Virus record (IMG/VR): IMGVR_UViG_3300007960_000050
Coordinates: 1 to 41,497 of that record
Direction: 5' to 3' (one strand)
Source: a virus
DNA: 41,497 nucleotides
Positions 19,394 to 29,794 of this stretch are shown here, piece after piece. A program made the position numbers and the translations under genes. The notes beneath the pieces were generated by a model. That model saw only the letters and a list, made by a program, of their open reading frames with translations. It made no database searches and had not been told where the DNA came from. Position 1 is the stretch's first letter. Each line of letters opens with the position of its first letter.

Positions 19394-19484
19394 CCTAAAC
19401 CCTTGGTACATAAGGACTTAGGTGCATCGGGGCGGGCCCCGCGAGACGTAAACCCTTACCACATAACGACTTAGGGCAATCTTC
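19394..19484 (+). repeat. early-region four-half-site element
   Basis: Left pair CCTAAACCCTT...AAGGACTTAGG, GC core CGGGGCGGGCCCCG, right pair CGTAAACCCTT...AACGACTTAGG, then GCAATCTTC. It lies between a stop codon and the next promoter. The 50 bp before it (from 19345) hold nothing recognisable apart from CA-rich sequence. Confidence 0.85.
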
Positions 19485-19525
19485 GAAAACTTTCTAAATC
19501 AGAGGGTAAAGTTAAAGGATATGTC

Positions 19526-19553
19526 TTGCAGTGGTCGATAAATATAGTATAAT
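19526..19553 (+). promoter_or_regulatory. early promoter
   Basis: TTGCAG, 16-bp spacer with TCGATAAATATAG, TATAAT. The first ATG of the transcript is only 6 nt after the -10 box, so the message would be leaderless. Confidence 0.8.
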
Positions 19554-19559
19554 ACCCAT

Positions 19560-19640
19560 ATGACAAGCAACCAAGCAACGTCCTGCCTGCATTTGCGGCT
19601 GAGACAAAGCTGGCACCGAAACCTATTTCAACGAGGATAA
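19560..19640 (+). CDS. possible leaderless leader peptide
   Basis: 26 codons starting MTSNQATSCLHLRL, with the ATG at the predicted transcription start. It ends 5 nt before the GTG of the next gene, whose AGGA site lies at the end of this frame. The position fits a coupled leader peptide; the sequence itself has no recognisable function, and it may be chance. Confidence 0.35.
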   Translation: MTSNQATSCLHLRLRQSWHRNLFQRG

Positions 19641-19645
19641 ATCAA

Positions 19646-19993
19646 GTGGCAACGGAACCAGAATCAGGCCAGCCGTCGAATGAGGCAGTTGTTCACACGC
19701 CGGGACCGTGGAGCATCGACGGGGTGAACGTCATTGCGGAGTCGTGGAAAGGGTCGCGGAACGCTAATGGCTGCGTGTGCTGCACTGTGTCTACAGACGG
19801 AAGATCGCCGTTCGAGCAAATAGAAAACGCTCGGCTGATTGCATCTGCACCCGATCTACTTATCGCATTACAGGAGTGTTTAGCCGTTATTTCGTGGGAT
19901 GAGTTAACGCACGGAGGCGCGATTGGCGCGGGTAACGCAGCGAGGGATGCAATCGAAAAGGCAACAGGCATCCGGCCTGCTGAGGTTGTGTGA
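19646..19993 (+). CDS. conserved phage protein of the HTPGPW type
   Basis: 115 aa starting at GTG. It contains HTPGPWSIDGVNV near the N-terminus and NARLIASAPDLLIALQECL in the middle, two blocks shared by a very common but uncharacterised family of small phage/prophage proteins (HTPGPW...NARLIAAAPDLLEAL). The gene is noticeably more GC-rich than its neighbours, which hints at recent acquisition. An AGGA ribosome site precedes GTG. Function unknown. Confidence 0.8.
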   Translation: MATEPESGQPSNEAVVHTPGPWSIDGVNVIAESWKGSRNANGCVCCTVSTDGRSPFEQIENARLIASAPDLLIALQECLAVISWDELTHGGAIGAGNAARDAIEKATGIRPAEVV

Positions 19994-20013
19994 ACAACAC
20001 AAAGGAAAACACA

Positions 20014-20286
20014 ATGACTAACACAATCCACAACGCAGGCGAGAGTGCATACCTTGACACATTTAGTGGGCTTATCGCCTGCACGGTTATGCGAGTCAGG
20101 GAAGCCGGTCACGGACAACATGCCACTAAAGGCAGAATTGAAGTCCGAATTGATCAAACGGATGGAAAAGGTGGATATAAAGCGGGGGAAACGCTGACCG
20201 ATTCCGCTGGTAACGTCGTACCCTCATCGCACGTAAAGGTCAGGGGCGGCAGGTTTCGCGTCGATGTCAACTATACGTGGCAGTAA
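20014..20286 (+). CDS. small early hypothetical protein
   Basis: 90 aa, starting MTNTIHNAGESAYLDTFSG. Beta-rich, with IACTVMRVRE, GRIEVRIDQTDG and HVKVRGGRFRVDV: a compact beta-barrel-like pattern. ATG 20014 is chosen over an upstream GTG because AAAGGAAAAC precedes it. No family recognised. Confidence 0.65.
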   Translation: MTNTIHNAGESAYLDTFSGLIACTVMRVREAGHGQHATKGRIEVRIDQTDGKGGYKAGETLTDSAGNVVPSSHVKVRGGRFRVDVNYTWQ

Positions 20287-20314
20287 AAACACAACATTTT
20301 TCAGGAGCAACAAA

Positions 20315-20503
20315 ATGGACGATTTTGCTTGTCAGATTCAGTGTGATGAAATGGATGCACAGGAATACTACATGGCTCAGGAATGGGCCGCTGAGTGCGA
20401 GCGTGAACGGTGGGAACTTTGGGCGTGCGTTGACGAAGTAGAGCAGCGTGAGGAAGATTGGCGAGAGTTTTGGGCGGAGGTTCGTAATGCAGGAACAAAC
20501 TAA
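20315..20503 (+). CDS. small acidic early protein
   Basis: 62 aa, starting MDDFACQIQCDEMDAQEYYM, rich in Glu and Trp (ERWELWACVDEVEQREEDWREFW). CAGGAG precedes the ATG. The N-terminal pattern (M-x-DF-x-x-QIQ-x-DE) is shared with the 64-aa protein at 22597 (MNDFLSQIQSDE), suggesting distant paralogy. Confidence 0.65.
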   Translation: MDDFACQIQCDEMDAQEYYMAQEWAAECERERWELWACVDEVEQREEDWREFWAEVRNAGTN

Positions 20504-20588
20504 AGACATCCTGATTGCTCTGGTTATGGGGCTTTTGGGGTTTGGCGGCTGGTATTATCTTGTGATCTGTTTTCAGAGAATGACGTAA
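20487..20588 (+). CDS. 33-aa single-pass membrane peptide
   Basis: MQEQTKDILIALVMGLLGFG followed by GWYYLVICFQRMT. One membrane segment covers residues ~8-28. GGAGG lies 7 nt before the ATG, and the start lies inside the end of the previous gene. Its stop TAA is part of the first half-site of the next repeat element. Function unknown; small early membrane proteins often modify host envelope functions. Confidence 0.6.
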   Translation: MQEQTKDILIALVMGLLGFGGWYYLVICFQRMT

Positions 20589-20682
20589 CCCCTTACCCTG
20601 CAACGACTTAGGTCGTGCGGGGCCCGCCCCCGGCGACGTAAACCCTTACCAGCAAACGACTTACGGCAATTCGGAAAAACTT
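20584..20682 (+). repeat. early-region four-half-site element
   Basis: Left pair CGTAACCCCTT...AACGACTTAGG, core GCGGGGCCCGCCCCCGGC, right pair CGTAAACCCTT...AACGACTTACGG, then CAATTC and an A-tract. It follows the stop of the 33-aa gene with no gap. Confidence 0.85.
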
Positions 20683-20704
20683 TCTGCTTTTGGTATTGTT
20701 GGGG

Positions 20705-20734
20705 TTGACAAAATGCCGATAACTATGGTAGAAT
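20705..20734 (+). promoter_or_regulatory. early promoter
   Basis: TTGACA, 18-bp spacer with GCCGATAACTATGG, TAGAAT. The spacing is two bases longer than the family norm. Confidence 0.7.
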
Positions 20735-20758
20735 GATACTTAATCAAGGAGAAACGAT

Positions 20759-20869
20759 ATGGATTTACTGGACAATCAAGAATTCATGACCTACGTTATG
20801 GTTCCGGCATTGCTTGGAATTATTTTGCTCATAATGTGGATTTTGGGATTTGACCCCATTGACAAATGA
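20759..20869 (+). CDS. 36-aa single-pass membrane peptide
   Basis: Starts MDLLDNQEFMTYVMVPALLG and continues with IILLIMWILGF, a clear membrane segment at residues ~13-31, ending DPIDK. AAGGAG precedes the ATG and its own promoter lies 25 bp upstream. No homologue recognised. Confidence 0.65.
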   Translation: MDLLDNQEFMTYVMVPALLGIILLIMWILGFDPIDK

Positions 20870-20886
20870 AGATCCTACGCTAAAAT
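20859..20886 (+). promoter_or_regulatory. early promoter
   Basis: TTGACA, 16-bp spacer without CGATA, TAAAAT. It starts within the last codons of the preceding gene and serves the 144-aa gene. Confidence 0.6.
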
Positions 20887-20923
20887 ATAGGCATACAACA
20901 CACAACACTTTGAAAGGTTAAAC

Positions 20924-21358
20924 ATGAACTACGATTCTTCTCTCCCTTACTGCGGTTTCAACAACATCGAAGAACTGACCGCTGATCTGCGACAAGCGTT
21001 CGCGGAGTGCATTACCGTTCCGAATCATCTGTTGCCGGAAGAGTTCCGCGATGAGGTTCGCGGTTGCCGTACTCTTGCACGTTTGGAAGAACTGTGCGAC
21101 AAGCGTGACGGTATCACCGAACACGTTAAGGAGCAAGCGATCAAGGCTCGCAACATTGAGAAGCTGCGAAAGCAGTTTGAAGAAAAAGCCGTTTACAAAA
21201 CCCACAAGGGTGGAACGGATTTTGTCGATCTCGATTCAGAATTCGACTACAGCGACAATGAGTGCGACGAATTGCAGTTGCACAAAAATATGCAAGCCTT
21301 AGTTGGTGGCATGGTCAATGGCGGTCTTTTGGATGCTGATGATCTTTTGGAGGATTAA
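20924..21358 (+). CDS. hypothetical early protein
   Basis: 144 aa, starting MNYDSSLPYCGFNNIEELTA. Mostly helical with a central basic helix (KRDGITEHVKEQAIKARNIEKLRKQFEEKA) and a strongly acidic C-terminus (LDSEFDYSDNECDE, LLDADDLLED). GAAAGG ribosome site. Not recognised. Confidence 0.7.
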   Translation: MNYDSSLPYCGFNNIEELTADLRQAFAECITVPNHLLPEEFRDEVRGCRTLARLEELCDKRDGITEHVKEQAIKARNIEKLRKQFEEKAVYKTHKGGTDFVDLDSEFDYSDNECDELQLHKNMQALVGGMVNGGLLDADDLLED

Positions 21359-21382
21359 AAATGTGGATCTGAAGTTTAGGGG

Positions 21383-21410
21383 TTGACATTCAGCCGATAA
21401 AGACTATAAT
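21383..21410 (+). promoter_or_regulatory. early promoter
   Basis: TTGACA, 16-bp spacer with GCCGATAAAGAC, TATAAT. An ATG follows 6 nt after the -10 box. Confidence 0.85.
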
Positions 21411-21416
21411 GAGGGC

Positions 21417-21473
21417 ATGAACAACACAGCCACGAACGGAAACAACGAACAACACTTTGGAGAATTGAAATGA
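21417..21473 (+). CDS. leaderless 18-aa leader peptide coupled to the next gene
   Basis: MNNTATNGNNEQHFGELK, Asn-rich. The ATG lies at the predicted transcription start. The TGA stop overlaps the ATG of the next gene as ATGA, and that gene's GGAG site lies inside this frame. Overlap plus leaderless start argue for translational coupling rather than chance. Expression is not shown. Confidence 0.45.
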   Translation: MNNTATNGNNEQHFGELK

Positions 21474-21781
21474 CTTTTTTCACTTACTGTCAAAATAACT
21501 CTGGTGGCGTTTTCTGCGATCCTGCGGAGTACGTTATCATCGAAGCACCTTCGACCAATGTGGCTGATGCAATCGCTGAGGACAACGGATTGTACTTCGA
21601 TGGCTGTGCTACGGGTATGGATTGCTCGTGCTGTGGTGATCGTTGGTATCGTGCGTGGTCTGATGAGGGCCACGATGAGCCGACTATCTACGGCGATGTT
21701 CTGTCGCGTGACGCGACCGAATACGAGGATAGCTGGGGTAACAAGAGTAGAGTGCTGATCATCCCGCTTGTATCGTCCTAA
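21470..21781 (+). CDS. hypothetical early protein
   Basis: 103 aa, starting MTFFTYCQNNSGGVFCDPAEY. It contains YVIIEAPSTNVADAIAEDNGLYFDG and a Cys cluster, CATGMDCSCCGDRWYRAW, that could bind zinc. This layout (a strand, VIIEA..., then CxxDCxCCGxRW) is one I associate with uncharacterised phage proteins. A GGAG site overlaps the leader frame. Confidence 0.7.
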   Translation: MTFFTYCQNNSGGVFCDPAEYVIIEAPSTNVADAIAEDNGLYFDGCATGMDCSCCGDRWYRAWSDEGHDEPTIYGDVLSRDATEYEDSWGNKSRVLIIPLVSS

Positions 21782-21812
21782 GTAAGCGAGTAGCCGCCGA
21801 GGCGGCAAGGGG

Positions 21813-21900
21813 CGTAAGTCCTTTGCTGCCAAGGGGTTACGTCGGCTGGGGCGGGCCGCGAACGTCGTAACTCCTTTGATACCAACGACTTAGGGCGATA
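21813..21900 (+). repeat. early-region four-half-site element
   Basis: Left pair CGTAAGTCCTT...AAGGGGTTACG, core GGGGCGGGCC, right pair CGTAACTCCTT...AACGACTTAGGG. A GCCGCC/GGCGGC palindrome at about 21792-21806 lies just before it, possibly a terminator stem without a T-tract. Confidence 0.85.
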
Positions 21901-21933
21901 ACAAAAAACTTCCACAAAATTATGCTCAAGGTC

Positions 21934-21961
21934 TTGACAAATCGTGCCGATACTGTATAAT
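21934..21961 (+). promoter_or_regulatory. early promoter
   Basis: TTGACA, 16-bp spacer with GTGCCGATACTG, TATAAT, followed after 6 nt by the ATG of a 51-aa gene. Confidence 0.85.
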
Positions 21962-21967
21962 GTAAGC

Positions 21968-22123
21968 ATGAAAAGAAATTATCACCAACTGACCTACAAT
22001 CCTTGGACGTGGAAACCGGTTCCACCCGAAACGCCTGAACAAACGGCAGACCGCAAACGGCGAGAAGCCGAAGCGGCAAAAAAGTACGAAGAAAAGTACG
22101 GAAAACCGCCGTTCAAGGCTTGA
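21968..22123 (+). CDS. small basic protein from a leaderless message
   Basis: 51 aa, starting MKRNYHQLTYNPWTWKPVPP, then a highly charged helix (RKRREAEAAKKYEEKYGK). No ribosome site is possible because the ATG coincides with the predicted transcription start. Its TGA stop is inside the -35 hexamer of the next promoter. Not recognised; a nucleic-acid-binding role is conceivable from the basic helix. Confidence 0.6.
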   Translation: MKRNYHQLTYNPWTWKPVPPETPEQTADRKRREAEAAKKYEEKYGKPPFKA

Positions 22124-22147
22124 CATTGTGGAGAAGTATGATAAAAT
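22120..22147 (+). promoter_or_regulatory. early promoter
   Basis: TTGACA, 16-bp spacer without CGATA, TAAAAT. The -35 box contains the previous stop codon. Confidence 0.6.
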
Positions 22148-22216
22148 ATACTTCTACGATGATCACTAGGACAACGTTAACATTTACCAACACGAAAAAC
22201 TGAGGAACTACCTAGT

Positions 22217-22516
22217 ATGATGACACGCAACGAATACATGGAAAACAGCAAAGAGCGTCACCACGATTACTACGCTCAATTTGTCACTGAGCAAACGCTG
22301 TCGTTTGTGCGTAACGTGATTGGGATTGACAAGCTGAAAGCCAGCGACGATCCGCACTTTAATGATGTTGTGCGATGGGAAGGTAGCACTTGGGCGTGGG
22401 ATCGCACGCCGATTAACTCAACACTCGCGAAAGAGTGCGGCGAGGGTCTGAGTATGTCAACCCGTACTTGTGTCGGCAAAGCTGCCGCCCGTATCCTGAT
22501 GGAGAATGAAAAATGA
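22217..22516 (+). CDS. hypothetical early protein
   Basis: 99 aa, starting MMTRNEYMENSKERHHDYYA. Helical N-terminal half (FVTEQTLSFVRNVIGIDKLKAS) and WEGSTWAWDRTPINSTLAKECGEG in the second half. GAGGAAC precedes the tandem ATGATG; the second ATG is equally possible. Not recognised. Confidence 0.65.
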   Translation: MMTRNEYMENSKERHHDYYAQFVTEQTLSFVRNVIGIDKLKASDDPHFNDVVRWEGSTWAWDRTPINSTLAKECGEGLSMSTRTCVGKAAARILMENEK

Positions 22517-22527
22517 GAAATTACCCC

Positions 22528-22555
22528 TTGACATACACCGCCCATACTGTATAAT
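22528..22555 (+). promoter_or_regulatory. early promoter
   Basis: TTGACA, 16-bp spacer (ACACCGCCCATACTG), TATAAT. It serves three small genes at 22597-23284. Confidence 0.8.
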
Positions 22556-22596
22556 AAAGCATATCACAACACGTTTCTTTTTTAGGAGTTTCAAAC

Positions 22597-22791
22597 ATGA
22601 ACGATTTTCTCTCTCAAATCCAGTCCGACGAATTGGTTGACTATCGCCCCACCGCAGAGGATTGGTCGGATCACGCCGATTACCTCGATTCCATCGGGTA
22701 CGATGAAGGTGACGACGATTGGGACGAAGATCCCGACGCTCACTATGGTTTCCAGAACCTTGACACCGATTGCCCCTTTTTAGGAGAATGA
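22597..22791 (+). CDS. small acidic early protein
   Basis: 64 aa, starting MNDFLSQIQSDELVDYRPTA, very rich in Asp/Glu (DEGDDDWDEDPDAH). AGGAG precedes it. A strongly acidic small protein may mimic DNA, but nothing specific shows this. Shares its N-terminal pattern with 20315-20503. Confidence 0.65.
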   Translation: MNDFLSQIQSDELVDYRPTAEDWSDHADYLDSIGYDEGDDDWDEDPDAHYGFQNLDTDCPFLGE

Positions 22792-22793
22792 CC

Positions 22794-22976
22794 ATGTACG
22801 ACGAGTTTGACGATTGCTGGTATCCCGCAGAGGATAATTACCACGAAGATATGTTGATGGCAGAAGCCGAAGCATTTTATAATGATGTTTATGGCGATGA
22901 TGATGATCACCACATTCCAAGCGAGGACGATGGTGATTACAATGACTTGCTTGACGAATACGATTTCCCATTTTAG
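22794..22976 (+). CDS. small acidic early protein
   Basis: 60 aa, starting MYDEFDDCWYPAEDNYHEDM, over one-third Asp/Glu. Start 22794 is chosen because AGGAG is 7 nt upstream; the in-frame ATG at 22788 is too close. It follows the previous acidic gene after 2 nt. Confidence 0.65.
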   Translation: MYDEFDDCWYPAEDNYHEDMLMAEAEAFYNDVYGDDDDHHIPSEDDGDYNDLLDEYDFPF

Positions 22977-22984
22977 GAGTTATT

Positions 22985-23284
22985 ATGAAACGCAATCCCC
23001 GTATTGTTTGTGCTGATGGTTTCTCGATGAGCGTTCAGGCTAACGAGTTCAGCTATTGCAAACCGCGACGAGACGCAGGACCGCACACGCATATGGAAGG
23101 CGGTTTTCCATCTAGCACACCACTAAACCCTGAACTAAGAAAGTTCGCTGAGGACTTGTATGGTTGTGACGATCAAAGTGAATGTGATTTCACCGAAACC
23201 GTTTACGGCTACGTTCCCCGCGAAGTGTTCGAGCGAGAGTTCGAGCTACACGGCGGAATAGTGGAAGGAAATCTTCCCTACTGA
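22985..23284 (+). CDS. hypothetical early protein
   Basis: 99 aa, starting MKRNPRIVCADGFSMSVQAN. Contains FSYCKPRRDAGPHTHMEGGFPSS and FTETVYGYVPREVFEREFELHGG. The opening (IVCADGFSMSVQA...YC.PR.D.GP) is reminiscent of an uncharacterised phage/bacterial family. AGGAG ribosome site. Confidence 0.7.
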   Translation: MKRNPRIVCADGFSMSVQANEFSYCKPRRDAGPHTHMEGGFPSSTPLNPELRKFAEDLYGCDDQSECDFTETVYGYVPREVFEREFELHGGIVEGNLPY

Positions 23285-23288
23285 AATC

Positions 23289-23380
23289 GACGTAAGTCCT
23301 TTCCCCGTAAGGGGTTAGGGCTTGCGGGGCGGGCCCCGCTCGACGTAAACCCTTGCACTGTAACGACTTACGACGATTCC
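23289..23380 (+). repeat. early-region four-half-site element
   Basis: Left pair CGTAAGTCCTT...AAGGGGTTAGG, core GCGGGGCGGGCCCCGC, right pair CGTAAACCCTT...AACGACTTACG, then ACGATTCC and an A-tract. The perfect 16-bp core palindrome is shared with the elements at 24896 and 26518. Confidence 0.85.
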
Positions 23381-23414
23381 AAAAAACCTCCACAAAAAAA
23401 CTACAGATACCCCC

Positions 23415-23442
23415 TTGACTTTGACGATGTATATGGTATAAT
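23415..23442 (+). promoter_or_regulatory. early promoter for a small ncRNA
   Basis: TTGACT, 16-bp spacer with GACGATGTATATGG, TATAAT. Its predicted start (about 23449) coincides with the first stem of the ncRNA at 23448-23544. Confidence 0.8.
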
Positions 23443-23447
23443 GATAG

Positions 23448-23544
23448 AGTAAGGCAAGCCAATGCGGTCCCACGAACTCGGGACAGGTTGGCTATCCCGC
23501 CTGACTGTGCTACAGCCTTCTCGGCACTAGGGCGGTGTCTTACT
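23448..23544 (+). ncRNA. 97-nt three-way-junction ncRNA
   Basis: No ORF; a strong promoter ends just before it. The ends pair over nine bases: AGTAAGGCA (23448) with TGTCTTACT (23536). Inside, AGCCAA/TTGGCT (23457/23488) encloses GTCCC/GGGAC, and CCGCC/GGCGG (23497/23531) encloses GTGC/GCAC. The junction has almost no unpaired bases. It does not match tRNA, hammerhead, purine, c-di-GMP or other riboswitch cores that I know. A TTATCC/GGATAA hairpin follows at 23545-23560 without a T-tract. Function unknown. Confidence 0.7.
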
Positions 23545-23581
23545 TTATCCTAACGGATAAGGTTGACATGGTACAGCCAGA

Positions 23582-23613
23582 GGGTCAGCGGGTCAGCGGG
23601 TCAGCGGGTTAGC
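23582..23613 (+). repeat. tandem 8-bp repeat, four units
   Basis: GGGTCAGC three times, then GGGTTAGC, followed by an A-tract and the next promoter. It lies in the 3' part of the ncRNA transcription unit. Confidence 0.85.
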
Positions 23614-23633
23614 GAAAAAAAAGATTTTACCCC

Positions 23634-23661
23634 TTGACAATCACAAAAGATATGGTATAAT
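23634..23661 (+). promoter_or_regulatory. early promoter
   Basis: TTGACA, 16-bp spacer without CGATA, TATAAT. The next ATG is 7 nt downstream. Confidence 0.8.
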
Positions 23662-23668
23662 AGAGAGT

Positions 23669-23842
23669 ATGAAAGACAAGCCCACACAATTCACAAGCAT
23701 GGCACAGAAACGCCGGTTTGAAGCACAACAACGAGAGATTGAAAGAATCAGAGATGAGAAGAAAGAAAGAGAAAATAATGCTGACGATCAAAGTCGGCAA
23801 AGTGCCAGTCGGCCATCAAGCGAACACCCATCAGGTGCATGA
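23669..23842 (+). CDS. small basic protein from a leaderless message
   Basis: 57 aa, starting MKDKPTQFTSMAQKRRFEAQ, then a charged helix (REIERIRDEKKEREN) and a Ser-rich end. No ribosome site can precede the ATG. A hairpin GTCCG/CGGAC follows the stop. Not recognised. Confidence 0.55.
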   Translation: MKDKPTQFTSMAQKRRFEAQQREIERIRDEKKERENNADDQSRQSASRPSSEHPSGA

Positions 23843-23901
23843 TAGTCGTCCGAAGCGTAATCGGACACGTTCACAACAACGATTGAATTGGAGGAAAGAA
23901 A

Positions 23902-24069
23902 ATGATTGTTAAATTCACCAAAGACAAAGAAACCAAGAACAAAGTCCGTTACAGCATCTTGCCACAAAATACCGTTGAGGGTATCATGGGGACGATCTAC
24001 GTGGACAAGGATACAGACCTTGCAAAAGAATCTGAAATTATTCTGGAAATTGCTCAAGTAACCGCTTGA
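23902..24069 (+). CDS. small hypothetical protein
   Basis: 55 aa, starting MIVKFTKDKETKNKVRYSIL. Beta-rich (NTVEGIMGTIYVDKD, SEIILEIAQV). GGAGG lies 9 nt upstream. Its TGA stop is inside the -35 box of the next promoter. Not recognised. Confidence 0.65.
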   Translation: MIVKFTKDKETKNKVRYSILPQNTVEGIMGTIYVDKDTDLAKESEIILEIAQVTA

Positions 24070-24093
24070 CAATGACGATAAATATAGTATAAT
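24066..24093 (+). promoter_or_regulatory. early promoter (near consensus)
   Basis: TTGACA, 16-bp spacer ATGACGATAAATATAG, TATAAT: the clearest copy of the early consensus. It serves three overlapping small genes. Confidence 0.9.
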
Positions 24094-24131
24094 GGTAGTA
24101 TAAGTTTCACAACACTTTTAGGAGATTGACC

Positions 24132-24350
24132 ATGAAAGTCAAACAAACTGTCAGCACCAAGTTTCACACAGCTTACACCGGCTGGAACTCGCTGGAGTTC
24201 ACTGATGAGAACGGTGACGAGATTCAGATTCAGATGACTGATGACAATTATCTGAGTCTTGCCCAAACGGTCGGTAAGAGAGCGGAGCGGATTAAGAAAG
24301 AACGGGCGGAAGCTGCCGCCAAACTCGTAGAGGAGAATGTTGATGAGTAA
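24132..24350 (+). CDS. small hypothetical protein
   Basis: 72 aa, starting MKVKQTVSTKFHTAYTGWNS. A beta N-terminus (LEFTDENGDEIQIQMTDDNY) is followed by a charged helix (KRAERIKKERAEAAAKLVEE). TAGGAG precedes this ATG; an upstream TTG is not needed. The end overlaps the next gene by 8 nt. Confidence 0.65.
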   Translation: MKVKQTVSTKFHTAYTGWNSLEFTDENGDEIQIQMTDDNYLSLAQTVGKRAERIKKERAEAAAKLVEENVDE

Positions 24351-24516
24351 CACCCAAACGCCGATTTGCAGGGTCGGCACTGAATTTCCTGCTGGTACTG
24401 TTGTCGCCATCAAGAACAACGGAGTTGAAATTGACACTGCGGAAGGTGTCAAACTGTTTTCTTTTTCACAAGTTGAAAGGTTTTGTCATGATCTCAGATC
24501 TCTATCTCAAGCGTAA
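24343..24516 (+). CDS. small hypothetical protein
   Basis: 57 aa, starting MSNTQTPICRVGTEFPAGTV. A beta-barrel-like pattern (GTVVAIKNNGVEIDTAEGVKLFSFSQVERF) as in many small phage proteins with an SH3-like fold. GAGGAG lies upstream inside the previous gene; overlaps of 8 and 29 nt join it to its neighbours. Confidence 0.6.
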   Translation: MSNTQTPICRVGTEFPAGTVVAIKNNGVEIDTAEGVKLFSFSQVERFCHDLRSLSQA

Positions 24517-24691
24517 CGAACGCAAAGTTTCTTTCCTCTACCCAGTTGGTGGAAAGAAGAACGTCCTTCGCCAAGTCAATGGCGTTAAGGTTAAGTCCTT
24601 CACCGGCCCTAACGGTCGCGGTATCACGGTCCGCGAGGACAACGGCTTGCATAAGTCATTCTCCGTGAGCAAGTGTGTAGCGAGCTTGTAA
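24488..24691 (+). CDS. small basic hypothetical protein
   Basis: 67 aa, starting MISDLYLKRNERKVSFLYPV. Lys-rich and beta-rich (KKNVLRQVNGVKVKSFTG, GITVREDNGLHKSFSV). GAAAGG precedes the ATG. Not recognised. Confidence 0.65.
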   Translation: MISDLYLKRNERKVSFLYPVGGKKNVLRQVNGVKVKSFTGPNGRGITVREDNGLHKSFSVSKCVASL

Positions 24692-24721
24692 AATATCGCT
24701 AACCTTTCGTGTTGTGGGGAG

Positions 24722-24752
24722 AACCACCCCTTCGGGGGTGGTATCTCTTTTT
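24722..24752 (+). terminator. intrinsic terminator with UUCG loop
   Basis: ACCACCCC-TTCG-GGGGTGGT, then ATCTCTTTTT. An 8-bp stem with a stable tetraloop and a moderately placed T-tract, 31 bp after the stop codon. The tRNA-like RNA starts 5 bp later, so it could also be a processing hairpin. Confidence 0.8.
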
Positions 24753-24757
24753 AATAT

Positions 24758-24885
24758 ACCTTGACTCTGGTTGAGTCCTTTGGCGGGTATACCGTCGATT
24801 GTTTCGCGAGCAATCCGATTTTGCAATCGTTGTGCATGACGAGGGCGAATGTGAAAGGGTGGGGGTTCGATTCCCCCGCGAGGTG
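24758..24885 (+). ncRNA. 128-nt tRNA-like RNA A
   Basis: A perfect T-arm, GGGGG-TTCGATT-CCCCC (24861-24877), is followed by GCGAGGT. The 5' end ACCTTGA (24758) pairs with it over six bases, giving an acceptor stem. Directly after comes a GACTC-TGGTT-GAGTC arm in D-arm position. CCTTT (24777) pairs with AAAGG (24854) where an anticodon stem would start, but about 70 nt with three hairpins (CGG/CCG, GATTG/CAATC, CGATT/AATCG) replace the anticodon loop. RNA B at 25084-25214 has the same plan. This is neither a normal tRNA nor a full tmRNA. Confidence 0.6.
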
Positions 24886-24895
24886 CTTTTATCGA

Positions 24896-24984
24896 CGTAA
24901 ACCCTTGGTATCAAACGACTTAGGGCTGGCGGGGCGGGCCCCGCTCGTCGTAAGTCCTTACGCCACAACGACTTACGGCAATTC
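24896..24984 (+). repeat. early-region four-half-site element
   Basis: Left pair CGTAAACCCTT...AACGACTTAGG, core GCGGGGCGGGCCCCGC, right pair CGTAAGTCCTT...AACGACTTACGG, then CAATTC. The right pair is the best local palindrome of the family (10 of 11 positions). Confidence 0.85.
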
Positions 24985-25027
24985 TGGAGAACTTCTAAAA
25001 CTTTCCTGCTTTTTGTGGTGAGACCCC

Positions 25028-25055
25028 TTGACAAATGACGATAATAAAGTATAAT
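25028..25055 (+). promoter_or_regulatory. early promoter for tRNA-like RNA B
   Basis: TTGACA, 16-bp spacer AATGACGATAATAAAG, TATAAT. Only a non-coding RNA lies between it and the next promoter at 25243. Confidence 0.85.
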
Positions 25056-25083
25056 AAGAGAGTAAGACACAGCGAAACAATAT

Positions 25084-25214
25084 GGGGCGTCTCGAAGGTG
25101 AGACCCGGACGCTACTTTTTGCCACAGGGTTTAGACTCTATTCCTTTAGCGGGGAATGACCTAACGGCGTGACAAATTGCCGGAATAAGGTTGGTTCAAT
25201 CCCAACACGCCCTT
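25084..25214 (+). ncRNA. 131-nt tRNA-like RNA B
   Basis: GGGGCGT (25084) pairs with ACGCCCT (25207) over seven bases. The T-arm is GTTGG-TTCAATC-CCAAC (25190-25206). The arm after the acceptor is GTCTC-GAAGGT-GAGAC, differing from RNA A at bases that still pair. CCGG (25105) and CCGG (25180) pair where an anticodon stem would be, with about 70 nt between them including an ATTCC/GGAAT hairpin. It has its own promoter 28 bp upstream and no ORF. Length nearly equals RNA A (128 nt). Confidence 0.65.
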
Positions 25215-25242
25215 GCCTACAAAATAAGTTAAAGTTTCCCCC

Positions 25243-25270
25243 TTGACAATGCCGATAAGTATGGTATAAT
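25243..25270 (+). promoter_or_regulatory. early promoter
   Basis: TTGACA, 16-bp spacer ATGCCGATAAGTATGG, TATAAT. It drives the GP88-family gene. Confidence 0.9.
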
Positions 25271-25296
25271 GAGGGTAACTCAAACGAAAGGTTTTT

Positions 25297-26061
25297 ATGA
25301 TGGTTAAGTTCAGCGATGCAAACGCCAAGCTCAAAGCTCTTTACGACGTTCCAGAATTGCAGCGATGGTTGCAAGATCGTCGCAAGGTTTACAGTTTCGA
25401 CCTACTTTCCGGTTGGTCGTGTCCACAAGCTAAAGATTGCTTATCTAAAGTTGTCCAGATAGGTGACAGTCGCAAGATTCAAGACGGTAAAGATTGCCAG
25501 TTCCGTTGTTTCTCTGCTTCTCAAGAGGCAACATTCCCAAATGCGTACAATAAACGCAAAGCCAATTTTGACTATATGAAGTCGTGCAAGTCTACGGATG
25601 AAATGGTTGACGAAATTGTGTCGGCTATGCCAAAAAATCTAGGTATCTGCCGGATTCACGTTGCTGGTGATTTTTTCAATCAAAAGTATTTTCGGGCATG
25701 GCGGGAAGTCGCAAGAATTTGTCCAGACCGATTGTTCTACGCTTACACCAAATCACTTTCGTGGTGGGTAGAAGATCGTGACAGCTTGCCAGAGAATTTT
25801 GTTCTGACCGCTTCGCGTGGTGGTCGTTTGGATCATATGATCGACGAACACAATCTACGCGAAAGCAAGGTTGTATTCTCCGAAGCCGAAGCCGATGCAC
25901 TAGGCTATGAGATTGACCACACTGACGAACACGCAGCGATTCCAGAGATTCGCGACGAATCGTTCGCACTATTGATTCATGGCGTGCAGCCTAAAGGCTC
26001 TGATGCTGCTGCCGCTATCAAACAACTCAAGAAAGAAAAGGTGAAGTTTTCCTATAGTTAG
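25297..26061 (+). CDS. GP88-family phage protein
   Basis: 254 aa. It shows the family signature near residues 33-75: FDLLSGWSCPQAKDCLSK...KDCQFRCFSASQEA, with four conserved Cys, then ICRIHVAGDFFNQKYFRAWREVA and FYAYTKSLSWW. GP88-like proteins are common in mycobacteriophages and other phages; the Cys set suggests a metal or Fe-S site, but no activity is established. GAAAGG precedes tandem ATGATG starts. Confidence 0.8.
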   Translation: MMVKFSDANAKLKALYDVPELQRWLQDRRKVYSFDLLSGWSCPQAKDCLSKVVQIGDSRKIQDGKDCQFRCFSASQEATFPNAYNKRKANFDYMKSCKSTDEMVDEIVSAMPKNLGICRIHVAGDFFNQKYFRAWREVARICPDRLFYAYTKSLSWWVEDRDSLPENFVLTASRGGRLDHMIDEHNLRESKVVFSEAEADALGYEIDHTDEHAAIPEIRDESFALLIHGVQPKGSDAAAAIKQLKKEKVKFSYS

Positions 26062-26076
26062 AAAGAAGGTTAAGGT

Positions 26077-26154
26077 GTGACGCAGTTTATAATTCTATCA
26101 GTGATTTTTGCAGTGGTGCATGGTATTTCAGATTCAAAAACGAAAGGTTATTAA
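26077..26154 (+). CDS. 25-aa membrane micropeptide, paralogue of 29586-29657
   Basis: Starts at GTG: MTQFIILSVIFAVVHGISDS plus KTKGY. A single hydrophobic segment covers residues ~4-14. AAGAAGG lies upstream, and the stop is 1 nt before the next ATG. The near-identical MTQFVILCVIFIVVHG sequence at 29586 supports both as real genes. Confidence 0.65.
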   Translation: MTQFIILSVIFAVVHGISDSKTKGY

Positions 26155-26155
26155 A

Positions 26156-26428
26156 ATGAAAAGTTTAGTTTTGTTTTCTTATCGTCAACCCGTCGAAGGT
26201 TCTAAGTTCCGTTGGGGCGTGTTGGAATCCCGGCGTAACACTGAAAAGCAGCCGCTTTCGTTGGATACTATTTTCGGGGCGTACCGTAAGTTCGATCCAG
26301 AGTTTGAGCGTTCGCGTGACCTTGATACGGTTCTAACTCGCGATGGTGTCAAGGCGTTCTATCGCGAGCGTCAGAATTGGGGTATCAAAATCCCCTTCCT
26401 TGGTTCGCTTGTCAAGCCATTCATGTAA
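26156..26428 (+). CDS. hypothetical early protein
   Basis: 90 aa, starting MKSLVLFSYRQPVEGSKFRW. Basic, alpha/beta pattern (LSLDTIFGAYRKFDPEFERSRDLDTVLTRDGVKAFYRERQ as separate elements). GAAAGG lies upstream inside the micropeptide frame. Hairpins CCTAG/CTAGG and ACGTCC/GGACGT follow the stop in the 90 bp before the next repeat. Confidence 0.65.
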   Translation: MKSLVLFSYRQPVEGSKFRWGVLESRRNTEKQPLSLDTIFGAYRKFDPEFERSRDLDTVLTRDGVKAFYRERQNWGIKIPFLGSLVKPFM

Positions 26429-26517
26429 ACACCTAGCAGGCCACTAGGAGCTACGTCCTACCTTTGGGGTATGCGGGACGTGGTTATAAAAGGCAAACCC
26501 CACTTTTTCCTTTTCGC

Positions 26518-26605
26518 CCTAAGTCCTTACTACCAAAGGGTTTAGGTGCGGCGGGGCGGGCCCCGCAAGCCCTAAGTCCTTACCACCAAACGACTTATGT
26601 CTTTC
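26518..26605 (+). repeat. early-region four-half-site element
   Basis: Left pair CCTAAGTCCTT...AAGGGTTTAGG, core GCGGGGCGGGCCCCGC, right pair CCTAAGTCCTT...AACGACTTATG. The left pair mixes the GTCC and ACCC half-site types. Confidence 0.85.
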
Positions 26606-26650
26606 CCAAACAAATCGGGTAAATCCGGCAAATAAACTGGACAGACCCCG

Positions 26651-26678
26651 TTGACAATGACGATAATTATTGTATAAT
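26651..26678 (+). promoter_or_regulatory. early promoter
   Basis: TTGACA, 16-bp spacer ATGACGATAATTATTG, TATAAT, 37 bp before the 71-aa gene. Confidence 0.9.
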
Positions 26679-26715
26679 AGGGGTGTAACGGGGAACGATA
26701 CTAAAAGGGGATGTT

Positions 26716-26931
26716 ATGGAAAAAGTCGCACACTATGCTTGGCCAGGTGGATATCCATTGTTCTACTATGTAGAATCTGCGGATGGTAAATTCCACAGTT
26801 GTCCATCATGTGTAAATCAGAACCGTATCGGCAAGAATGTCGATTGTTGCAAGGCGTATATCAATTATGAGGATGATACGCTTTTCTGTGAAGTTTGTGA
26901 AAAGCAGATTGAATCTGCTTATGGGGATTGA
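26716..26931 (+). CDS. small putative zinc-binding protein
   Basis: 71 aa, starting MEKVAHYAWPGGYPLFYYVE. Cys pairs CPSC and CEVC plus a CC between them suggest a zinc ribbon. AAAAGGGG precedes the ATG. The TGA stop is inside the -35 of the next promoter. Confidence 0.7.
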   Translation: MEKVAHYAWPGGYPLFYYVESADGKFHSCPSCVNQNRIGKNVDCCKAYINYEDDTLFCEVCEKQIESAYGD

Positions 26932-26955
26932 CATTCAAGGCAAGGATGCTATAAT
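26928..26955 (+). promoter_or_regulatory. possible early promoter
   Basis: TTGACA, 16-bp spacer without CGATA, TATAAT. It overlaps the previous stop and the first candidate ATG (26954) of the next gene, which favours the later start at 26996. Confidence 0.55.
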
Positions 26956-26995
26956 GACGATATCTAAAGAACAAGTCTTTCAAAAGGCACTTGAG

Positions 26996-27448
26996 ATGAG
27001 CAACAAAAAGCCAAGAGTTCAGAGAAGCAGCGAGATTGCACAGCACATCGACCCAAGCAAAAGGGTTCGCGTTTATCGCAATCTCCACAAGCAGTGTTTC
27101 AGTGTCAAGCAAGACGGTTTTGTGCGTTGCCATGCCGATCAAGTTACGCTTCAGGATTGTAAATTCATTGTGTCCAAGGCTGGACAAAAAAGAGTCAGGG
27201 ATGAAGGTCGTAAAAACGTTCATGCTTTTGTTGAAGGTTTGTTGGTTAATACTCGTGAGGCCGACACGATTGTTGACGGTGCGAAGTCTGATGCCGAAAT
27301 GGATGCAGGCAAGAGTGACTGGCAAAAAGCCTACTACAATCCATATACCTGCGACACGTTCATCAATCAGTATGACGGATCACCACTAGAGACAGCGACG
27401 TTTGCTGATCTTTACATTGACCCAACCACAATTTACATCTTTAACTAG
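26996..27448 (+). CDS. hypothetical early protein
   Basis: 150 aa from ATG 26996 (MSNKKPRVQRSSEIAQHIDP). AAAAGG lies ~9 nt upstream and the promoter -10 box covers the earlier in-frame ATG at 26954. It contains RVRVYRNLHKQCFSVKQDGFVRCHADQ-type strands and RDEGRKNVHAFVEGLLV, a combination I associate with small conserved phage proteins of unknown role. The C-terminus (WQKAYYNPYTCDTFI) is aromatic. Confidence 0.7.
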   Translation: MSNKKPRVQRSSEIAQHIDPSKRVRVYRNLHKQCFSVKQDGFVRCHADQVTLQDCKFIVSKAGQKRVRDEGRKNVHAFVEGLLVNTREADTIVDGAKSDAEMDAGKSDWQKAYYNPYTCDTFINQYDGSPLETATFADLYIDPTTIYIFN

Positions 27449-27458
27449 GAGAATTATA

Positions 27459-27878
27459 ATGGGACTTGACCAATACGCTTTTGCTCGTAAGGGTGAACCA
27501 ATCGAAACCACTGAGGATTACACTTATCAGGATTTTGATGGTAACACTCACACTGAACAGCGAACGTCTGTTTCGTATGAGGAAGAACACGAGGTTGCCT
27601 ACTGGCGTAAGCATCCTAACCTTCAAGGTTGGATGGAACAGCTTTGGCGTGAGAAGGGTGGTGAAGGTGAGTTCAACTGTGTTGATGTTGAATTGACGCT
27701 TGAGGACTTGGACGATTTAGAGCGAACCCTTGACGGTGAAGCGTTGCCGGAAACGCAAGGTTTCTTTTTTGGACAAAACTCTGACGATTATTATGCAGAG
27801 CAAGACCGCGAGTTTATTCTTGCTGCTCGTAACAATATCAGAGATGGTTATAAAGTTGTTTATACTTCATGGTGGTAA
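27459..27878 (+). CDS. conserved phage protein of the MGLDQY type
   Basis: 139 aa, starting MGLDQYAFARKGEPIETTED. It contains VAYWRKHPNLQGWMEQLWREKG and a late aromatic segment DDYYAEQDREFILAARNNI. Short proteins opening MGLD-x-Y and carrying YWRKHPNLQGWM are widespread in phages and uncharacterised. AGGAG lies 7 nt before the ATG; an upstream TTG is rejected. Confidence 0.8.
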   Translation: MGLDQYAFARKGEPIETTEDYTYQDFDGNTHTEQRTSVSYEEEHEVAYWRKHPNLQGWMEQLWREKGGEGEFNCVDVELTLEDLDDLERTLDGEALPETQGFFFGQNSDDYYAEQDREFILAARNNIRDGYKVVYTSWW

Positions 27879-27880
27879 TT

Positions 27881-28036
27881 ATGACTACATGCCTACTTCT
27901 ATTAAATGATATTGAAGAACTGTCGTTGACTCTCTCAGATATGATAGGGGATCAGAAGCACACGACGGACGAGATCGCAGCCATTGCGGAGGCTGTGTTG
28001 GCACTAACTAAACTCCACAAAGAGTTAACCAAATAG
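27881..28036 (+). CDS. small hypothetical protein
   Basis: 51 aa, starting MTTCLLLLNDIEELSLTLSD, all-helical. It starts 2 nt after the previous stop without a clear ribosome site, so coupling is likely. Not recognised. Confidence 0.5.
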   Translation: MTTCLLLLNDIEELSLTLSDMIGDQKHTTDEIAAIAEAVLALTKLHKELTK

Positions 28037-28050
28037 TTTTTCCAAATCGC

Positions 28051-28140
28051 CATAAGTCCTTTACCCGCAAGGGTTTAGGGCTGGCGAGGCCCCCCCGCCG
28101 CGACCTAAGTCCTTTGATACCAACGACTTACGTCAATTCC
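28051..28140 (+). repeat. early-region four-half-site element
   Basis: Left pair CATAAGTCCTT...AAGGGTTTAGGG, altered core GGCGAGGCCCCCCCGCCG, right pair CCTAAGTCCTT...AACGACTTACG, then TCAATTCC. Confidence 0.85.
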
Positions 28141-28193
28141 GCAGAGCAAATACCATGCCAATAAAATTCTGGGAAAAAACCTAAAGATTCCCC

Positions 28194-28221
28194 TTGACAT
28201 TGACGATAAATATTGTATAAT
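28194..28221 (+). promoter_or_regulatory. early promoter
   Basis: TTGACA, 16-bp spacer TTGACGATAAATATTG, TATAAT; the gene ATG follows after 6 nt. Confidence 0.9.
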
Positions 28222-28227
28222 GATGAC

Positions 28228-28437
28228 ATGAGCAACACGACACTTGTTCGAGTTGCCTGCCCCATGTGCGGCGAACGTCGCACGTTGGAAGTCCCTGCTG
28301 AGGGTTTCGAGCGTTGGCAAGCTGGTGAGTTGATCCAGAATGCCATGCCCGAACTCAATGCGGACGACCGTGAGCAGTTGATCAGTGGCACTTGTGGTGC
28401 CTGCTGGGACAAGCTGTTCCCGTCCGAGGACGAGTAG
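28228..28437 (+). CDS. small zinc-ribbon-like protein, leaderless
   Basis: 69 aa, starting MSNTTLVRVACPMCGERRTL. CPMC near the start and CGAC near the end (LISGTCGACWDKLFPSEDE) form a likely zinc site. The same layout (ACP.C...LEVPAEGF..W..G..IQ.AMP.L) is familiar from small phage proteins of unknown function. The ATG coincides with the predicted transcription start, and a strong upstream ribosome site is absent. Confidence 0.75.
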   Translation: MSNTTLVRVACPMCGERRTLEVPAEGFERWQAGELIQNAMPELNADDREQLISGTCGACWDKLFPSEDE

Positions 28438-28523
28438 GCTTCTCAACCGTCGCCCTTCGGGGTGTGGAGTTTGGCAAGCTCTGTCGAAATTACTCAATTG
28501 CCAAAACTTTTTAATTTTCCCTC

Positions 28524-28551
28524 TTGACTTTTGCCTGCTGTATGGTATAAT
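28524..28551 (+). promoter_or_regulatory. early promoter
   Basis: TTGACT, 16-bp spacer TTTGCCTGCTGTATGG, TATAAT. A CGATA motif is missing. It drives the DUF932 gene. Confidence 0.85.
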
Positions 28552-28599
28552 ACAGGGGTAAGTTTTTAGTTTCGAGTCGCTCACTGAAAGGGTTTAATC

Positions 28600-29526
28600 A
28601 TGAGCAACATTCAAGCATCTGACGTTTCCGCTTCTGTCCGTTCCGCTTTCGATTTCAGCGTTGACAAGTTCCCGCTGTACGGTCCTGACAACATGCCCAC
28701 TGACCAGTATGGTCTGTTCCGGTCTGATACCGGCTACATTGAGGGCGTTAAGTCCATCTCATCCCGTTACGTTCCCCACTCGACTGATGACGTTTGTGCG
28801 TTGGTTGAGGCCGCTTCGACCATGTTCGACGGTGAGGTTGAGTGCAAAACCCACTGGAACAAAGGGCATTATGTGTCCGTTGCTCCAACCCGTGATCGTC
28901 GTCGTGCCATCTTTGGCACTAACGATAACATTTTCCCTCGCGTAATTATTCGCGGTGGATTCGACGGTAAGGGTTTCCACGGTAGCATGGGCTACTGGCG
29001 TGACGCTTGCGACAACCTCGCCATGATGCGTAAGGTTTCCGGTTGCGTTGTGTCGATTCGTCACACTTCCGGCTTGCGTGATCGCATGACTGAGTTGGTC
29101 GAGACTTTCAGCCAACTTGAGGAAGGTTGGGAAAACATGACTGTTGCCGCCCAAGCGATGCAGCAGCGTGATGTCAACCTGTCCGAGTTTGTGCGTGAGG
29201 TGTACGCTGATCGCGTTCCATCCGCTGAGGAGTTGATTCTGCACGAGCAGAAGAAACAACGTGCCGTGACTACGTTTGAAAACATGATGGAAGCCATCAT
29301 GGATCGCGTTGTCTCTGAGCGTGAAACCACTGGACGCGATGCGTTCCAAGTTGGCGAGAAGAAAATCGTCTCCGCTTGGGAAGCGTTTAACGCTGTGCAG
29401 GGTTACGTTCAGCACGATGCACAAGCCAAGAAGGGCTTCAAGTCCGACTTCGCTAGAATCCTTCGTGCATCGTCTGACCGTTACGTTCTCGCGGCTGAGA
29501 CTCTGGCACTAGAACTTTCGGCGTAA
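28600..29526 (+). CDS. DUF932 family protein
   Basis: 308 aa. The DUF932 (phage/plasmid-like protein) pattern is visible: SISSRYVPHSTDDVCALVEAA, then FPRVIIRGGFDGKGFHGSMGYWRDACDNLAMMR and VSIRHTSGLRDRM, and a helical C-terminal half. The family is common on phages and plasmids; its biochemical role is not settled. GAAAGG precedes the ATG. An intrinsic terminator follows 20 bp after the stop. Confidence 0.85.
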   Translation: MSNIQASDVSASVRSAFDFSVDKFPLYGPDNMPTDQYGLFRSDTGYIEGVKSISSRYVPHSTDDVCALVEAASTMFDGEVECKTHWNKGHYVSVAPTRDRRRAIFGTNDNIFPRVIIRGGFDGKGFHGSMGYWRDACDNLAMMRKVSGCVVSIRHTSGLRDRMTELVETFSQLEEGWENMTVAAQAMQQRDVNLSEFVREVYADRVPSAEELILHEQKKQRAVTTFENMMEAIMDRVVSERETTGRDAFQVGEKKIVSAWEAFNAVQGYVQHDAQAKKGFKSDFARILRASSDRYVLAAETLALELSA

Positions 29527-29546
29527 CGTTTACCCTTTCGTGAGTC

Positions 29547-29575
29547 GCCTGCCCCCTTCGGGGGGCGGGCTTTCT
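29547..29575 (+). terminator. intrinsic terminator
   Basis: GCCTGCCCCC-TTC-GGGGGGCGGGC followed by TTTCT. A very GC-rich 9-10 bp stem directly after the DUF932 gene; the T-tract is short. Confidence 0.75.
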
Positions 29576-29585
29576 GGAGGGTAAC

Positions 29586-29657
29586 ATGACCCAATTTGTA
29601 ATTTTGTGCGTGATTTTTATCGTGGTTCACGGGGTAGCTGAGAAGGATTGGCCGTAG
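29586..29657 (+). CDS. 23-aa membrane micropeptide, paralogue of 26077-26154
   Basis: MTQFVILCVIFIVVHGVAEK then DWP. GGAGG lies 6 nt before the ATG. 12 of the first 16 residues equal the peptide at 26077, and the changes are conservative. One membrane segment. It follows the DUF932 terminator, so it needs readthrough. Confidence 0.65.
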   Translation: MTQFVILCVIFIVVHGVAEKDWP

Positions 29658-29704
29658 GCTGTCAACCCCAAATCCACACTTTTTTCCAATTTTTCCCGAA
29701 TCGC

Positions 29705-29794
29705 CGTAAGTCCTTACCAGCAAAGGACTTGCGTCGAGCGGGGCGGGCCTCACCGCACCTAAGTCCTTATATATCAACAACTTACGTCAAATTC
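29705..29794 (+). repeat. early-region four-half-site element (last copy)
   Basis: Left pair CGTAAGTCCTT...AAGGACTTGCG, eroded core GCGGGGCGGGCC, right pair CCTAAGTCCTT...AACAACTTACG, then TCAAATTC. No copy is seen after this point although early promoters continue to 40.2 kb. Confidence 0.8.

What the first reader, a model, noticed from the sequence alone, without database searches (positions are those of the whole stretch)
24758..25214. A pair of ~130-nt tRNA-like RNAs with an insert in place of the anticodon arm
Seen: RNAs at 24758-24885 (128 nt) and 25084-25214 (131 nt) each have a canonical T-arm, pairing ends in acceptor position, a 5-bp arm right after the acceptor (GACTC/GAGTC versus GTCTC/GAGAC, a covariation), and a short helix (CCTTT/AAAGG versus CCGG/CCGG) enclosing about 70 nt. 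B has its own strong promoter. Known: tmRNA replaces the anticodon arm by a long helix but is usually much longer and lacks a D-stem. Inference: a compact tRNA mimic class, or tRNAs with odd introns. It could decoy tRNA-processing or aminoacylating enzymes, or a tRNA-cleaving host defence.
Basis: partly seen in the sequence, partly recalled or inferred. Interest (0 to 1): 0.85.

Follow-up and report, generated by a model that had tools for sequence, protein, structure and literature searches.

The report
Phage tRNA-like RNAs with swapped arm
A phage carries two ~130-nucleotide RNAs that fold like transfer RNAs but have a ~75-nucleotide extra domain where the anticodon arm should be; relatives keep the fold through matched base changes, so these are real tRNA mimics, related in design to an unexplained stable RNA of phage T4.

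Summary
RNA A (24758-24885) and RNA B (25084-25214) have a 7-nt acceptor position, a D-like hairpin with GG in its loop, a central arm in place of the anticodon arm, and a canonical T-arm. A matching descriptor hits only A and B in the window (0.04 expected per shuffled window).

Relatives prove the fold. In six B-type RNAs 99.3% of cells pair and 13 of 23 pairs change on both sides; slid controls pair at most 64.5%. A and its one relative keep 37 of 37 pairs, 8 with double changes. A covariance model found a held-out B relative at 97 bits, in the phage that also carries an A relative. Neither RNA is an ordinary tRNA, intron-bearing tRNA, tmRNA or Rfam family. Several further tRNA-like families sit upstream of the GP88 gene in related phages, mostly behind near-consensus promoters.

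The closest known RNA is T4 species 1 RNA (rnaC): stable, late, function unknown, also with an acceptor, a T-arm and a ~100-nt insert. I read A and B as tRNA-shell RNAs made and matured as tRNAs, the insert carrying the function. A decoy or competitor for a host tRNA-binding factor is my leading guess, untested.

The parts
24758..24885 (+). RNA A, tRNA-like RNA (128 nt incl. discriminator G)
   Evidence: homolog L011 844-971 keeps 37/37 pairs, 8 double changes
24758..24764 (+). RNA A acceptor 5' strand (ACCTTGA; position 7 unpaired with 66, G at 24763 can pair in the D arm instead)
24763..24777 (+). RNA A D-like hairpin GACTC-TGGTT-GAGTC
   Evidence: one compensatory and one G-U change in L011
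24778..24781 (+). RNA A central helix, 5' strand CTTT (pairs with 24855-24858 AAGG)
   Evidence: 2 double and 2 single changes, no break
24797..24815 (+). RNA A insert hairpin GATTGTT-TCGCG-AGCAATC
24820..24849 (+). RNA A insert arm TTTGC..TCGTT-GTGCAT-GACGA..GCGAA with invariant GUGCAU loop
   Evidence: 4 double changes in 9 pairs
24861..24877 (+). RNA A T-arm, loop TTCGATT
24878..24884 (+). RNA A acceptor 3' strand GCGAGGT; discriminator G 24885, no CCA encoded
24723..24752 (+). intrinsic terminator directly upstream of RNA A
   Evidence: same arrangement in L011
25028..25055 (+). sigma70-type promoter of RNA B (TTGACA-16-TATAAT), -10 ends 28 nt before the RNA
25084..25214 (+). RNA B, tRNA-like RNA (131 nt incl. 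discriminator T)
25084..25090 (+). RNA B acceptor 5' strand GGGGCGT
   Evidence: 7/7 pairs in 6 homologs, 4 with double changes
25091..25102 (+). RNA B D-like hairpin CTC-GAAGGT-GAG, invariant GG in loop
   Evidence: 3/3 pairs with double changes
25105..25183 (+). RNA B central arm replacing the anticodon arm (CCGG 25105-25108 / CCGG 25180-25183)
   Evidence: inner helix CGTC/GACG versus TTTG/CAAA in homologs
25139..25158 (+). RNA B apical hairpin of the central arm, TATTCCTT-TAGC-GGGGAATG
   Evidence: 8/8 pairs in 6 homologs, 3 with double changes
25190..25206 (+). RNA B T-arm, loop TTCAATC
   Evidence: 5/5 pairs, 3 with double changes
25207..25213 (+). RNA B acceptor 3' strand ACGCCCT (G1.U72); discriminator T 25214, no CCA encoded
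25297..26061 (+). neighbour gene: GP88 family protein (PF17338), own promoter 25243-25270

Best explanation
A and B are two members of a class of phage small RNAs built on a tRNA shell: acceptor stem, D-like hairpin and T-arm that should dock as a tRNA elbow, with the anticodon arm replaced by a longer structured arm. Shown computationally: the fold, its conservation, B's promoter. Inferred: they are transcribed, trimmed at the acceptor by host tRNA-processing enzymes (RNase P, 3' trimming, perhaps CCA addition) and accumulate as stable RNAs. Most likely action (inferred): the shell is bound by a host factor that recognises the tRNA elbow or acceptor, such as a tRNA-cleaving defence nuclease or a tRNA-modifying or charging enzyme, and the insert, which has no decoding loop in tRNA position, turns that binding into sequestration or inhibition.
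For: Covariation on acceptor, D, apical and T helices; invariant GG in the D-loop of the B family and T-loop TTCRAYY in five of its six members; held-out relative at 97 bits; near-consensus promoters end 6-28 nt before the RNA's 5' end in B, L176, L009, L186, L010, L206, L196, L258; the same promoter-driven slot holds ordinary tRNA-Asp in L203, L205, L210, L212, so shell RNAs and real tRNAs seem interchangeable there; several dissimilar families at one locus suggest fast turnover. Phages use strongly expressed tRNAs to escape tRNA-cleaving defences (PMC11555353). T4 rnaC, a comparable RNA, is a real stable late RNA (PMC9697503).
Against: No transcript, processing, charging or binding partner has been observed, and the host is unknown. 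A pure elbow decoy would not need conserved insert sequence, yet the B family keeps TTTMGCRG..TGACCT..GGCG and A keeps GUGCAU. The B relative L294 has a non-standard T-loop (AUCGUCA). L196 and L258 have broken acceptor pairs. A has no promoter of its own.
Confidence: 0.42

Rival explanations
1. Scaffolded regulatory RNA: the tRNA shell only gives maturation and nuclease resistance, and the insert is the working part, binding a phage or host protein or an mRNA unrelated to tRNA biology.
For: Insert sequence is conserved within each family and unrelated between families while the shell persists; T-even relatives of T4 rnaC keep acceptor and T-arm but swap the insert.
Against: Does not explain why a D-loop with GG and a full elbow are kept when an acceptor plus T-arm would do; no target identified.
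Confidence: 0.33
2. tmRNA-like translation factor: charged and taken to the ribosome by EF-Tu like tmRNA or another translation mimic.
For: Same topology as tmRNA: tRNA ends with a long arm in place of the anticodon arm.
Against: ARAGORN tmRNA mode and Rfam find nothing in A or B; no SmpB in 20 large related records; no G3.U70 in the acceptors; ~130 nt leaves little room for a tag reading frame.
Confidence: 0.1
3. tRNA genes interrupted by an unusual ~70-nt intron that is removed to give a working tRNA.
For: L206 and L192 RNAs are scored by ARAGORN as intron-bearing tRNAs.
Against: A, B and their closest relatives are not, even with introns up to 250 nt; the insert is conserved and structured; far shorter than self-splicing introns.
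Confidence: 0.04
4. Decayed tRNA genes or chance hairpins with no present function.
For: Weak folding z-score for B.
Against: Compensatory changes in all four outer or apical helices of the B family and in D, central and insert helices of A; near-consensus promoters.
Confidence: 0.02

Closest known systems
Bacteriophage T4 species 1 RNA (rnaC, 139 nt, AF158101 70908-71046)
   Same: Similar size; T-arm CCGGG-UUCGAAU-CCCGG followed by a 7-nt acceptor strand; large insert; no encoded CCA; located in the tRNA cluster. Acceptor and T-arm change in compensation in T-even relatives while the insert is replaced in some. Stable late RNA of unknown function (PMC3014915, PMC9697503).
   Different: No sequence similarity; two U.U mismatches in the acceptor of most members; no recognisable D hairpin with GG; its insert is two separate hairpins. 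Not shown to be homologous.
tmRNA (SsrA)
   Same: tRNA-like ends and T-arm, long arm in anticodon-arm position.
   Different: A and B are ~130 nt, have a D stem, no detected tag frame, not scored as tmRNA.
Bacterial Y RNA YrlA
   Same: 90-150 nt RNA with a tRNA-like domain (D, T and acceptor-like arms), a known non-tRNA mimic (PMC8394870).
   Different: In YrlA the 5' and 3' ends form the Ro60/Rsr-binding stem; here the ends form the acceptor and the extra domain sits at the anticodon position. No TROVE/Ro60 gene in 20 large relatives or the window.
Phage-encoded ordinary tRNAs
   Same: Same promoter-driven slot upstream of GP88 in several relatives; 3' ends without encoded CCA.
   Different: No anticodon arm; not scored by ARAGORN or Rfam tRNA.

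Membership tests
tRNA (Rfam RF00005 / ARAGORN) | 7-bp acceptor, D arm and T arm of tRNA type | tested here: met
   B. A: 6 pairs plus a mismatch at position 7. The two-nucleotide spacer 8-9 is absent in both.
tRNA (Rfam RF00005 / ARAGORN) | anticodon stem-loop of 5 bp and 7 nt | tested here: not met
   Replaced by a ~75-80 nt arm; not recognised by ARAGORN or Rfam gathering
tRNA with intron | recognised as tRNA once an intron is allowed | tested here: not met
   ARAGORN -i0,250: none in A, B, L176, L264, L009, L186, L010, L011
tmRNA | tmRNA profile with tag reading frame | tested here: not met
tmRNA | aminoacylation with alanine (G3.U70) | tested here: not met
   position 3:70 is C-G in A and G-C in all six B-type RNAs; charging itself not testable
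Y RNA / YrlA | 5' and 3' ends form the Ro60-binding stem | tested here: not met
   ends form the acceptor next to the T-arm
Y RNA / YrlA | associated Ro60 (TROVE) gene | tested here: not met
   0 of 20 large related records and window; records may be incomplete
T4 species 1 RNA (rnaC) type | acceptor + T-arm enclosing a large non-tRNA insert, ~140 nt | tested here: met
T4 species 1 RNA (rnaC) type | sequence homology to rnaC | tested here: not met
   model R1 on the whole T4 record finds only weak matches at ordinary tRNAs, not rnaC
T4 species 1 RNA (rnaC) type | stable transcript of full length | not testable with these tools
   no RNA data

The most novel reading that the evidence does not exclude
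Phages carry a previously unrecognised, diverse class of tRNA-shell RNAs in which one structural frame (acceptor, elbow) carries exchangeable inserts; T4 species 1 RNA is one of them, and they act as decoys or adaptors against host tRNA-directed defences.
Probability: 0.3. Interest if true: 0.85.

Novelty: new variant of a known kind. Interest (0 to 1): 0.62.

Why it matters
Few non-tRNA RNAs are known to mimic tRNA in bacteria (tmRNA, Y RNA). Here a group of uncultivated phages carries at least two such RNAs in one genome and several further families at the same promoter-driven slot, none matched in Rfam. The comparison also puts T4 species 1 RNA, unexplained in a genetically tractable phage, into the same structural group, so a shared hypothesis about tRNA-directed host factors can be tested there.

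Tried and rejected
Exact motif scan for RNA A (GTTTCGC..TTGTGCATGA) in viral contigs: 84 stretches, about what chance gives; only A and L011 had a T-arm. Rfam with relaxed threshold: only chance-level matches, incl. sub-threshold tRNA-Sec for A and for T4 rnaC. DNA similarity to cultured phages: no RNA match for window 24700-25300 or for four RNA families, so no cultured host. Y RNA and SmpB partners absent. GP88 as an RNA-binding partner: no solved relative; confident model with only weak TIM-barrel / radical-SAM-like fold matches, E >= 0.037, so nothing concluded. Reading the apical loop (TTTCGC.., TTTAGC..) as an anticodon-loop mimic: possible in A and L011 (7-nt loop), but the B family prefers a 4- or 8-nt loop; left open. 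MAFFT misplaced the 5' end of L294, so the model alignment A12 was used instead, which leans towards its structure; the independent MAFFT alignment A4 gives the same result.

Full report
Observation. The window is a 41.5-kb phage fragment (terminase-like, RIIA/RIIB-like, GP88, UvdE genes) with three ordinary tRNAs at 39.4-39.9 kb. RNA A and RNA B lie upstream of a GP88-family gene (25297-26061). With a T-arm + acceptor + GG-hairpin descriptor they are the only hits on either strand; shuffled windows give 0.04. Folding energy is only moderately low, so I relied on relatives.

B family. GP88 loci and a motif scan gave L176, L264/L266, L009 and L186. On the MAFFT alignment A4 the acceptor (7), D (3), apical (8) and T (5) pairs form in 99.1% of cells, 12 of 23 pairs change on both sides, and sliding the partners drops pairing to at most 64% with at most 2 such pairs. 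A covariance model from these five found one further strong match in 45 related or control records, L294 at 97.4 bits. It was not used to build the model, has acceptor GGGGTGT/ACACCCC, and folds into the same cloverleaf on its own. With it, 13 of 23 pairs have double changes. Inside the central arm, CCGG/CCGG is invariant in B, L176, L264 and L294, CGTC/GACG alternates with TTTG/CAAA, and the segment TTTMGCRG-N4-TGACCT-N3-GGCG is kept in all members except one G in L294.

A family. The only relative found is in L011, 71% identical. All 37 pairs of the proposed fold hold in both, with 8 double changes; slid controls pair at most 53%. This supports a D hairpin, a central helix in anticodon-stem position, and two insert arms, one with an invariant GUGCAU loop. 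Several alignment gaps are of 1-2 nt, against a coding explanation. L011 and L294 lie in the same 162.7-kb record, so A and B types occur together in two phages.

Wider set. Upstream of GP88 in related phages I found other RNAs with the same ends but different inserts: L010; L196/L258/L206 with L272 and L274, where a D-loop segment pairs with the bases before the T-arm (6 bp, two compensated positions); L233/L225/L229 (~165 nt) and L223/L230 (~176 nt), with T-loops of the TGCRANN type; and L192/L197. A strict T-arm + 7-bp acceptor scan gives 16 hits in 80 GP88 loci against 0.33 in shuffles; some are duplicates or mis-started ordinary tRNAs. Near-consensus promoters end 6-28 nt before the RNA in eight cases. 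In four other phages that slot holds an ordinary tRNA-Asp. In L264 and L294 the B-type RNA lies in a longer non-coding stretch with spacers such as ACAATACAAT.

What it is not. ARAGORN with introns or in tmRNA mode and Rfam do not recognise A or B. Related large records have no Ro60 or SmpB, and the ends are arranged differently from YrlA (PMC8394870).

Closest known. T4 species 1 RNA (rnaC) ends in a canonical T-arm and an acceptor strand pairing with its 5' end. Across T-even relatives the acceptor and T-arm change in compensation (A-U to G-C at position 3; U.U mismatches replaced by pairs in a Yersinia phage), while in three relatives the insert differs. It is expressed late, confirmed by Northern blot, function unknown. 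I regard it as the same kind of object, not a homolog.

Mechanism. Shown: fold, conservation, promoter. Inferred: transcription, tRNA-type processing, stability. My leading guess is competition for a host tRNA-binding factor, by analogy with phages that escape tRNA-cleaving defences through strongly expressed tRNAs (PMC11555353). The scaffold reading is nearly as likely. Neither is tested.

Limits. Relatives are few (six B-type, two A-type). All are from uncultivated phages without a known host. The descriptor was written after seeing the RNAs, and the A12 alignment is fitted to its model. The literature searched was open-access only, so an earlier description of T4 species 1 RNA as tRNA-like in older papers could not be checked.

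Noticed in passing
window 19394-29758 (14 half-sites on +, often 53 nt apart, e.g. 24896 and 24949): Repeated palindromic intergenic element (TAAGTCCTT..AACGACTTA type) many times in the window and in relatives, often just upstream of promoters.
   Followed up: partly
L009 9838-9925; L176 1311-1397: A second, nearly identical ~88-nt element (GTTCCTAGCC..GGTTCGCCA) with two T-loop-like hairpins (TGCAAAT, TGCAATT) follows the tRNA-like RNA; it is cleanly absent in the window.
   Followed up: no
L294 1770-1890 minus strand: A tRNA-like RNA with acceptor GACTGGT/ACCAGTC containing two identical T-arm sequences (GCGAGGGTTCGACTCCCTC), in an array with the B relative.
   Followed up: no
L294 1501-1630 minus strand: T-loop AUCGUCA, as if the U54-A58 pair were swapped to A54-U58, in an otherwise conserved B relative.
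   Followed up: no
L225, L229, L233, L230 upstream of the RNA: A conserved ~58-nt hairpin element GCCGCTCCC..GCGGC precedes two different tRNA-like families.
   Followed up: no
window 25297-26061: GP88 protein: confident model (pLDDT 91), three invariant cysteines (42, 48, 71), only weak TIM-barrel / radical-SAM-like fold matches.
   Followed up: partly
L196 2251-2400, L258 2250-2400: Acceptor pairing is broken at positions 2, 3 and 8, and the promoter places the start at about the RNA's 5' end, so RNase P processing may be dispensable there.
   Followed up: no
L310, L314, L315 (T-even phages): rnaC relatives with conserved acceptor and T-arm but a different insert.
   Followed up: partly
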